Origin: a virus
DNA length: 29,381 nt
Direction: 5' to 3' (one strand)
Virus record (IMG/VR): IMGVR_UViG_3300043395_002445
Span: 1-29,381 of that record
Positions 8,023-10,382 of this stretch are shown one piece after another (the stretch's first letter is position 1; each line of letters starts with the position of its first letter). The notes under the pieces are model-generated. The model was not told the origin of the DNA and ran no database searches. It was given only the letters and a program-made list of their open reading frames with translations. The position numbers and the translations under genes were made by a program.

Positions 8023-8667
8023 TTAAGCAGCGACAGCCAACCGAATAACCTTGGCCATTTTCTTTCCGTGAGCAATGTATCCAATGACTGGCACCTGCTT
8101 ATCATAGCAAGCACGGCAGTCCAAGCATTTTCCGCCTTGCTGTGGTGCTTGGCATACAGTAACACCAGCAGGCACTGGTGCACCTTCGGGAATGATAGTG
8201 CTACCATGCACGCCTTTGGTGAAAGTGCCATCCACAGCATCGGAGCTAAAGCGCACCATTACATTGTCCAGTGCTTGCATTTTAGCAATGACGTCTTGGA
8301 ATTTTGGAAATTTAGCCATGCGGGTTGGCAACCAGTGCTTGGTGTTAGGGGTTGCTTCCATAACAGCGAGCATTTTATTTGCAAGCTCTAGGGAGTACAT
8401 ATCCCCAGAATCAAACCAACGGAAGTGCTTTTCTTTTTTCAGAGCAGCAACCATATCGCTGGTCCAACCTTCACGTTTGGCGTCCTGCTTATTGTCGAAG
8501 CGGACTTTTTTGGTATCGGGAAAATTGTAGCAACCAGTGGTAGCATAGCAACCAGAGCAAGCAGGCACCAGCTCACCGTCAGGACCAACCGAACCGGGGC
8601 AGGTTTCAACAGCTTGCAAGGACCAGCTCTTGGTGCCAAGCTTGGCGGTTTTGGATAATTTTAACAT
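8023..8667 (-). CDS. Cys-rich GP88-like phage protein
   Basis: 214 aa; CAGGAGCGAAAATG start context. Cysteine clusters: CPGS...CSGCYATTGCYN (about 23-48) and CQAPQQGGKCLDCRACYDKQVP near the end. A middle block SGDMYSLELANKMLAVMEATPNTKHWLPTRM recalls GP88 (mycobacteriophage gene 88) and DUF5131-type phage proteins. CxxCYA-like motifs suggest metal binding, possibly an iron-sulfur or zinc site, but there is no classical radical-SAM CxxxCxxC. Codon use is richer in G/C than the rightward neighbours. Function unknown. Confidence 0.75.
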   Translation of the reverse strand: MLKLSKTAKLGTKSWSLQAVETCPGSVGPDGELVPACSGCYATTGCYNFPDTKKVRFDNKQDAKREGWTSDMVAALKKEKHFRWFDSGDMYSLELANKMLAVMEATPNTKHWLPTRMAKFPKFQDVIAKMQALDNVMVRFSSDAVDGTFTKGVHGSTIIPEGAPVPAGVTVCQAPQQGGKCLDCRACYDKQVPVIGYIAHGKKMAKVIRLAVAA

Positions 8668-9377: not shown

Positions 9378-9406
9378 AGTATAACCGAAAATTGCCGATT
9401 AGGCAA
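9378..9406 (-). promoter_or_regulatory. Sigma70 promoter for the coiled-coil gene
   Basis: On the minus strand: TTGCCT (9401-9406), 17-bp spacer, TATACT (9378-9383). AAAAAAGTTCTCAGG precedes it and TGCTGGAA lies upstream. The -35 overlaps the stop codon of the upstream leftward gene (TTGCCTAA), and a 5-bp inverted repeat TTGCC/GGCAA surrounds it. Confidence 0.85.
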
Positions 9407-9641
9407 CCTGAGAACTTTTTTCTTCCAGCATTTTGCTCAAGATATATTTGGCGATATTAATCTGCTGGCGTGCTTGGTTCTGGGTTTGAGCGGTATTGCA
9501 CGCCATGAGCTCTTGAGCATCCGACAGCACGCTCATAGCAACCATTTCCAAACCAGACAAGCGAGCGGTCAAACCGTTACAATATTCCTGCTCGATATCT
9601 GCTTGGCTCATACCGTAGCACTGCTTTTCGAATTCCGTCAT
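9399..9641 (-). CDS. Helical protein, 80 aa
   Basis: GGAGCGAAAATG start context, like the GP88-like gene. The sequence is helical and compact, with three Cys (CYGM, EYCNG, MACNT), a KQCYGMSQADIEQEYCNG opening and a C-terminal helix QARQQINIAKYILSKMLEEK. No membrane segment, no recognised family. It is the leftward gene nearest the divergent region. Confidence 0.7.
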   Translation of the reverse strand: MTEFEKQCYGMSQADIEQEYCNGLTARLSGLEMVAMSVLSDAQELMACNTAQTQNQARQQINIAKYILSKMLEEKSSQVA

Positions 9642-9671
9642 TTTCGCTCCTGTTCAATTGACTATGGGTGT

Positions 9672-9700
9672 ACTATATCAAAAACCTAGGCAATTGGCAA
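9672..9700 (-). promoter_or_regulatory. Sigma70 promoter of the 80-aa gene
   Basis: On the minus strand: TTGCCA (9695-9700), 17-bp spacer, TATAGT (9672-9677), preceded by AATAAAGTATTAGG and TGCTGGAGT. It fires leftward out of the divergent region and is almost the same module as the promoter at 8697-8724. Confidence 0.88.
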
Positions 9701-9740: not shown

Positions 9741-9768
9741 TTGACGGATCCAGCAGGACGTGTATAAT
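9741..9768 (+). promoter_or_regulatory. Rightward promoter without a clear gene
   Basis: TTGACG (9741-9746), 16-bp spacer, TATAAT (9763-9768). Only a 19-codon frame (9795-9854) follows, so the transcript may be an untranslated RNA or a primer for the candidate origin. No intrinsic terminator is obvious downstream. Confidence 0.6.
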
Positions 9769-9808
9769 TGAACCATTCGAAAGCAGGACTGGGATGCACA
9801 CGGAGCCT

Positions 9809-9895
9809 GCACAAATGAAAACAAAAGCACTCAGCAACCAACAGGAATTGTAAACTTTTTTCTGACCGGGGCGCACAAATTGAAAACAAAAGCAC
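9809..9895 (+). repeat. Direct repeat pair (iteron-like)
   Basis: A 22-base unit at 9809-9830 (starts GCACAAAT, ends AAAAGCAC) recurs at 9873-9895 with one extra T, 64 bases apart. A shorter related string (ATGAAAACAAAA) appears at 10215. Such repeats are usual at replication or recombination sites. Confidence 0.55.
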
Positions 9896-10086
9896 ACAAA
9901 ATCACACGGAAATGCTCTGAGTTGCTCTGTAATGCTAAAAGATTATATGCCGCTCCCAAACTAAGTCCCAATTCTTACATGGACCTTGCGATTCATAATG
10001 CGAAATTATTACACTTTTTTGCACTTTTTAACACCAAAGCATTCCAACCAATTCCTAATACTTTTTTCTTATATCACACCAAAAAG

Positions 10087-10118
10087 TTATCCACAGCATA
10101 TCCACAGGTTTATGCACA
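10087..10118 (+). promoter_or_regulatory. Cluster of three DnaA-box-like 9-mers
   Basis: Two perfect matches to TTATNCACA (TTATCCACA, TTATGCACA) flank one that differs in its first base (ATATCCACA). All are in the same direction with about one helical turn between starts, which suits cooperative DnaA binding. Chance of such spacing in a 30-base stretch is low, but I have not computed it. Confidence 0.65.
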
Positions 10119-10179
10119 CCTCCAGGTGAGTGTATACTAAGGTTCTCAAGCATTTTGCTGTAATACTATAGCATTATGC

Positions 10180-10208
10180 TTGCCATTGTCTCTGCTTTTT
10201 GATATAGT
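10180..10208 (+). promoter_or_regulatory. Rightward early promoter with palindromes
   Basis: TTGCCA (10180-10185), 17-bp spacer, TATAGT (10203-10208); the spacer end and -10 (TTTTTGATATAGTACAC) are the same as at the leftward 8879 and 9672 promoters. Two near-identical palindromes, AGCATTTTGCT (10149-10159) and AGCATTATGCT (10170-10180), lie 21 bp apart just upstream and could be operators. Confidence 0.85.
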
Positions 10209-10238
10209 ACACGCATGAAAACAAAAAACGAGCGAAAC

Positions 10239-10382
10239 ATGAAAATGTATACTTTGGTATTCACTGAGGCGGAATTAGAACTAATTTATGACCAGTTGAA
10301 TATTGTAGAACTTTATGATGATTCTGAGGAAAACTTAGAACTTTGTAATTCAATTAATGATAAAATCGCAAAGGCAGAGTAA
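10239..10382 (+). CDS. Small acidic early protein, 47 aa
   Basis: First gene of the rightward early block. ATG 10239 follows GAGCGAAAC; an in-frame ATG at 10215 is so near the -10 that it would be nearly leaderless. Sequence MKMYTLVFTEAELELIYDQL with an acidic C-terminal helix (EENLELCNSINDKIAKAE). Unknown function. The next gene starts two bases after the stop. Confidence 0.6.
   Translation: MKMYTLVFTEAELELIYDQLNIVELYDDSEENLELCNSINDKIAKAE

What the first reader, a model, noticed from the sequence alone, without database searches (positions are those of the whole stretch)
9809..10138. Candidate phage replication origin with DnaA-box cluster and iteron-like repeats
Between divergent gene blocks lies a gene-free stretch with a 22-base direct repeat (9809-9830, 9873-9895), a promoter with no clear gene (9741-9768), an AT-rich segment, and TTATCCACA, ATATCCACA and TTATGCACA starting 11 and 12 bases apart. 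T4-type phages normally use R-loop or recombination origins, so dependence on host DnaA would be unusual for this lineage. The promoter transcript could prime synthesis.
Basis: partly seen in the sequence, partly recalled or inferred. Interest (0 to 1): 0.8.

Follow-up and report, generated by a model that had tools for sequence, protein, structure and literature searches.

The report
Conserved DnaA-box site in T4-like phages
An uncultured group of T4-like phages carries one small, conserved non-coding control region that pairs an early promoter with a tight row of binding sites for the host's replication starter protein DnaA, most simply read as a replication origin that uses a host protein T4-type phages were not thought to need.

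Summary
At 10087-10118 lie TTATCCACA, ATATCCACA and TTATGCACA, starting 11 and 12 bp apart; no shuffle of the window reproduces such a cluster (0/400). The '22-base repeat' is weaker: a 15-nt core of early-gene leader type, not conserved in relatives. Comparison with 43 related contigs shows a composite element. Module A is a sigma70 promoter (9741-9768) plus a conserved leader (9775-9809), one copy per contig. Module B (9957-10003) is ACTAAG followed by NGCGA-N7-NGCGN. Module C is the DnaA-box array. Close box pairs occur in 27 of 43 module-A contigs, always downstream of A (43/43 places), and nowhere else in those contigs. None occur in seven cultured T4-like phages. Boxes are 41-fold enriched in the 700 bp after A. 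The element sits between divergent early genes. T4 replisome genes, gp59 included, are present. Best reading (0.6): an early-transcription origin carrying host DnaA boxes, analogous to T4 oriE and the lambda origin. Rivals are DnaA-controlled early transcription and DnaA titration. Against it: no genome-scale GC-skew inflection, 16 of 43 contigs lack box pairs (several keep A and B), no experimental data.

The parts
9741..9768 (+). Module A promoter: sigma70 type, TTGACG-N16-TATAAT, early-mode (no phage factor needed by consensus)
   Evidence: same promoter directly before the leader in nearly all relatives
9775..9809 (+). Module A leader ATTCGAAAGCAGGACTGGGATGCACACGGAGCCTG, at or just after the predicted transcription start
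   Evidence: one copy per contig; the reversed control pattern has no match
9816..9830 (+).
9881..9895 (+). Second copy of the same repeat core
9957..10003 (+). Module B: ACTAAG (9960-9965) then TGCGA (9987-9991) and TGCGA (9999-10003), 12 bp start to start
   Evidence: profile match E = 1.1e-7; found in relatives between module A and the boxes, also in several that lack boxes
10004..10086 (.). AT-rich, T-rich stretch (ACACTTTTTTGCACTTTTT), possible unwinding region
   Evidence: position of the AT-rich stretch varies among relatives
10087..10095 (+). DnaA box 1, TTATCCACA
10098..10106 (+). DnaA box 2, ATATCCACA
10110..10118 (+). DnaA box 3, TTATGCACA
9672..9700 (-). Leftward early promoter TTGCCA-N17-TATAGT (in arm of inverted repeat 9664-9700 / 10180-10216)
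10180..10208 (+). Rightward early promoter TTGCCA-N17-TATAGT of the gene starting at 10215
8023..8667 (-). Leftward gene, 214 aa, Pfam GP88 family (function unknown); landmark used to find relatives
9399..9641 (-). Last small leftward gene before the intergenic region
10215..10382 (+). First small rightward early gene after the element

Best explanation
The intergenic region is a composite replication origin of an uncultured T4-like (Kyanoviridae-related) phage clade. Proposed working: host RNA polymerase starts a short non-coding early transcript at module A; the transcript runs without a recognisable terminator through module B and the AT-rich stretch into a row of DnaA boxes; host DnaA bound cooperatively on the 11/12-bp spaced boxes, helped by transcription, opens the duplex; the transcript (T4 R-loop style) or the opened bubble then receives the phage's own gp59/gp41/gp61/gp43 machinery for the first rounds of copying, before recombination-dependent replication takes over. 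SHOWN by sequence: promoter, leader, module B, boxes, their order, spacing, uniqueness and enrichment, divergent genes, T4 replisome genes. INFERRED: that DnaA binds, that the region fires as an origin, and whether the transcript primes.
For: Box pairs occur only downstream of module A: 43 of 43 places in 27 of 43 contigs, none elsewhere in them, zero control matches. Single boxes: 38 seen against 0.92 expected in the 700 bp after A, log10 p about -46, still about -41 without the window and the contig also found by the box pattern. In a 174.5 kb relative the four boxes are the only cluster in the contig. Box number and sequence turn over (2 to 6 boxes, N = C, G, A or T) while the core consensus stays, as expected for binding sites under selection. 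The element sits at the switch between leftward and rightward early genes, as T4 oriE, oriF and oriG do (PMC3016281). No terminator-like site between promoter and boxes. The phage clade encodes gp43, gp41, gp61, UvsX and gp59.
Against: No genome-scale GC-skew inflection at the site in two relatives. 16 of 43 A-bearing contigs lack box pairs (some are short fragments), several keeping A and B, so DnaA cannot be needed clade-wide. In some contigs 1-3 kb with small genes is inserted between A and B/boxes, so A's transcript is not always a short primer. The AT-rich stretch is modest and not at a fixed place. The transcript has no unusual fold (z = 0.33). A phage with its own gp59 helicase loader has no obvious need for DnaA. 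No read-depth or nascent-strand data.
Confidence: 0.6

Rival explanations
1. The boxes are an operator: host DnaA (by level or nucleotide state) activates or represses the early promoters around them, so phage early genes read the host's replication state. No origin is involved.
For: The box arrays end tens of bases upstream of the next early promoter (window 10118 versus -35 at 10180; similar in L024, L030, G1). DnaA is a known transcription factor (PMC8203912). In some relatives the same slot carries a Fur-like palindrome instead or as well, which fits a slot for host regulators.
Against: Box to promoter distance is not fixed, and in several contigs box arrays lie 1.4-3.3 kb from A. An operator does not explain why the array is unique per genome and tied to modules A and B.
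Confidence: 0.2
2. Modules A and B are the functional origin (R-loop or phage-initiator type), and the 9-mers are bound by a phage protein or are a dispensable accessory.
For: A and B persist where box pairs are missing (G002, G008, L101, L143, L144). T4 oriF needs only a promoter and an unwinding stretch (PMC3016281).
Against: The 9-mers follow the host DnaA consensus TTATNCACA closely, free position included, and are tightly spaced on one strand.
Confidence: 0.1
3. DnaA titration: many phage copies of 2-6 strong boxes soak up host DnaA and stop new host replication rounds.
For: Boxes are near-perfect consensus and clustered. Titration of DnaA by extra boxes is known in E. coli (reference cited in PMC8203912).
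Against: Only 2-6 boxes per genome, with no clusters elsewhere; titration needs neither the promoter, nor module B, nor a fixed site.
Confidence: 0.08
4. Chance 9-mers in an AT-rich intergenic region.
For: The genome is AT-rich and DnaA-like 9-mers are common singly.
Against: 0 of 400 shuffles; 43 of 43 pair places downstream of A and zero control matches.
Confidence: 0.02

Closest known systems
Bacteriophage T4 oriE (early-promoter origin with iterons)
   Same: Early, host-sigma70 promoter; short tandem repeats of unknown role; near a switch of transcription direction; T4-type replisome (PMC3016281).
   Different: T4 oriE lies inside gene 5, and its surroundings hold no exact TTATNCACA; the whole T4 genome has no close box pair.
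T4 oriF/oriG R-loop origins
   Same: Promoter followed downstream by an AT-rich stretch.
   Different: Those use MotA-dependent middle promoters, and the T4 review names no DnaA sites; an R-loop was not testable here.
Phage lambda origin with DnaA-stimulated transcription
   Same: A phage origin region where host DnaA boxes lie next to origin promoters (PMC3985674).
   Different: Lambda uses O and P proteins and the host replisome; this phage has a T4-type replisome.
Bacterial oriC and DnaA-box plasmid origins
   Same: Consensus DnaA boxes closely spaced on one strand near an AT-rich stretch.
   Different: No initiator gene next to it, phage early-gene setting, conserved modules A and B not known to me from oriC.
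RNA-based prophage origins of mycobacteriophages
   Same: A phage origin built on a non-coding transcript (PMC7157519).
   Different: Temperate extrachromosomal prophages; that paper does not mention DnaA.

Membership tests
DnaA-dependent (oriC-like) origin | Cluster of consensus DnaA boxes, more than chance | tested here: met
DnaA-dependent (oriC-like) origin | Adjacent duplex-unwinding AT-rich stretch | tested here: inconclusive
   Modest in the window (5th percentile), variable in relatives
DnaA-dependent (oriC-like) origin | GC-skew minimum or switch at the site | tested here: not met
   No genome-scale inflection in G001 or G002; local switch only. Skew is a usual sign, not a strict requirement, in phages
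DnaA-dependent (oriC-like) origin | DnaA binding and autonomous replication | not testable with these tools
   needs footprinting and cloning
T4 R-loop origin (oriF/oriG type) | MotA middle promoter | tested here: inconclusive
   Promoter has good -35 and -10 sigma70 matches, i.e. early type; a MotA box was not scanned for
T4 R-loop origin (oriF/oriG type) | Stable R-loop downstream of the promoter | not testable with these tools
   needs R-loop mapping in infected cells
T4 oriE type | Early promoter plus tandem repeats near transcription divergence | tested here: met
   the repeats here are DnaA boxes, which T4 oriE lacks
T4 oriE type | Proven origin activity | not testable with these tools
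   needs nascent-DNA mapping
Kyanoviridae-related T4-like phages (lineage) | T4-type replication and structural genes with nearest named relatives in Kyanoviridae | tested here: met
   (the window's own rIIA gene hits Straboviridae best; no lineage tree was built)

The most novel reading that the evidence does not exclude
A whole clade of T4-like phages starts replication from one conserved three-module origin whose third module is an exchangeable slot for host regulators (DnaA boxes in most, Fur-like sites in a few), so the phage ties its first round of copying to the state of the host cell, and in box-bearing members truly needs host DnaA.
Probability: 0.2. Interest if true: 0.85.

Novelty: new variant of a known kind. 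Interest (0 to 1): 0.7.

Why it matters
T4-type phages are the textbook case of replication independent of the host initiator, and the T4 origin review does not mention DnaA. A conserved, genome-unique DnaA-box array joined to an early transcript in a T4-like clade would add a host-licensed route to origin firing, would give a sequence rule for finding origins in metagenomic T4-like phages, and bears on what the unexplained T4 oriE repeats do.

Tried and rejected
Iteron reading of the 22-base repeat: rejected, it is an early-gene leader sequence and not conserved at the site. Structured RNA: no Rfam family, fold no better than shuffles, and the leader's possible CAGG/CCTG stem is weak and inconsistent by eye. 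Short coding ORF from the promoter: no consistent ORF. GC-skew origin call: no inflection. G-rich R-loop leader idea: the window's leader is not strongly G-skewed, so dropped. Finding the element in cultured phages: none by blastn or by pattern in seven T4-like genomes. Host from the genome collection: a single match, in a metagenome-assembled genome contig labelled Bacteroidetes that has the same phage-like promoter and leader, probably a misplaced phage contig. A degenerate module B scan was too unspecific. The window itself is a 29.4 kb fragment, so genome-wide tests were made on relatives.

Full report
What was checked. The window is a 29,381-base viral record with T4 RNase H, rIIA-like and other T4-type genes, a cobS-like AAA protein, an SPFH/Band 7 protein and many small early genes. 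DNA of the region has no match among 50,697 phage records; by protein the nearest named phages are T4-like members of Kyanoviridae such as Pelagibacter phage HTVC008M, Methylophilales phage Melnitz and Synechococcus phages. The three 9-mers are present exactly as described. Single DnaA-like 9-mers are common in the window, but a cluster of three within 24 bp with two perfect ones was not produced by any of 400 shuffles.

Relatives. A scan of viral contigs for three spaced boxes found 18 stretches, one of them a true relative with the same flanking sequence; most of the others look like unrelated regions with many boxes. Independently, a search with the neighbouring 214-aa GP88-family protein gave 35 relatives. 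In L023, L024, L028 and L030 two to six boxes lie 1.4-1.7 kb upstream of that gene, at the place of the window's boxes, in otherwise different sequence. In the 174.5 kb contig G001 the four boxes at 139744-139804 are the only cluster in the whole contig.

Module A. Reading those regions side by side showed a conserved promoter and start: TTGNC...TATAAT, then ATTCGAAAGCNNGACTGGGNTGSAC. Scans with that leader found 30 stretches and, for a one-base-shorter form, 16. It occurs once per contig, with no match to the reversed control pattern. It is not in T4, Klebsiella phage KPV15, Synechococcus phages S-PM2, S-CAM1 and ACG-2014d, HTVC008M or Melnitz-3. Invariance inside the scanned pattern is a selection effect; the promoter hexamers and the CTG-ended half that follows were not part of the pattern and are nevertheless conserved.

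Module C is tied to module A. Searching whole contigs for two boxes 10-13 bp apart gave 43 places in 27 of 43 A-bearing contigs. Every place is downstream of A, most 0.2-0.7 kb away and a few 1.4-3.3 kb away where small genes are inserted, and nearly all on the same strand as A; the control pattern gave none, and seven cultured T4-like genomes gave none. Counting single TTATNCACA over 21 contigs (1.69 Mb), 38 lie in the 700 bp after A against 0.92 expected. The contigs were collected by the leader or the GP88 gene, not by boxes, except the window itself and G006 (which the leader and GP88 searches also find); leaving both out does not change the result. Related contigs are not independent, so the p-value is nominal.

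Module B. Between A and the boxes many relatives carry ACTAAG, about 20-35 bases, then NGCGA-N7-NGCGN with 12 bp between the two starts. A profile finds it once in G001, once in G002 and at E = 1.1e-7 in the window (the window was among the sequences the profile was built from). It stays close to the box array even when genes separate both from A (G043, G022), and it is kept in several contigs that have no box pair. In those, the slot holds T-rich repeats (CACTTTTTGACACTTT) or other sites, among them a perfect Fur-like palindrome in L099.

Setting and machinery. Leftward genes lie to the left of A and rightward early genes to the right in most contigs. No terminator-like site lies between the strong promoter and the boxes. 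All seven large contigs tested encode a T4 gp59 helicase loader, and G001 encodes gp43, gp41, gp61, UvsX and clamp-loader homologues, so the phage brings its own replisome.

Interpretation. The order promoter - leader - B - boxes, unique per genome, at a point of divergence, is what an origin looks like, and the T4 review describes T4 oriE as an early-promoter origin with tandem repeats of unknown role near such a point (PMC3016281). In lambda, DnaA sites next to an origin promoter are known (PMC3985674). I therefore favour an early-transcript origin that uses host DnaA (0.6). The chain DnaA binding - opening - loading of the phage replisome is inference. The main facts against it are the missing genome-scale skew signal, the 16 contigs without box pairs, and the inserted genes between A and the boxes in some. 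A DnaA-controlled early operon (0.2), an A+B origin in which the boxes are accessory (0.1) and DnaA titration (0.08) remain possible.

Known or new. No paper found in the open library describes DnaA boxes in T4-like phages (the T4 origin review and a comparative paper on 26 T4-like genomes do not mention DnaA). Subscription papers were not searched, so priority is not certain. I rate it a new variant of a known kind: phage origin regions with host DnaA boxes exist; a T4-type one with these conserved modules was not found described.

Noticed in passing
L099:12338, L106:9675, L110:3318 (= L129:4814): Fur-box-like palindromes (GAGAATCATTCTCAT, GCGAATGATTCTCAT) directly at module B or beside the boxes in several relatives; similar sequence by eye in L108. 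Suggests other host regulators may bind in this slot.
   Followed up: partly
L113, L121, L143, L133 (module B region): Other palindromes or repeats in the same slot (ACTGACTGGTCAGT; TTACTAACCAATCGGTCA twice; TAGTAAGCGCTTACTTA), resembling operator sites.
   Followed up: no
window 9664-9700 and 10180-10216: The two early promoters flanking the region are similar inverted copies (37 nt, 78%): TTGCCA-N17-TATAGT, part of a recurrent early-promoter sequence with AATACTTT upstream.
   Followed up: partly
L055 (1180-1266 from GP88 start), L053/L054 (758-909): More distant phages with the GP88-family gene also carry DnaA-box arrays upstream of it, in L055 four boxes at 20-bp spacing plus one inverted.
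   Followed up: no
L273 (CAIVQI010000123.1): Module A with the same promoter in a contig of a genome bin labelled Bacteroidetes; probably a phage contig placed in the wrong bin.
   Followed up: partly
G001, about 96-100 kb: The part of a 459-aa ORF that was scanned matches only the C-terminal half of the DNA polymerase profile (438-709), so gp43 seems to be split or interrupted in this relative.
   Followed up: no
L005-L012, L014-L022: Mostly unrelated viral or plasmid-like contigs with dense TTATCCACA arrays, found by the three-box pattern.
   Followed up: no
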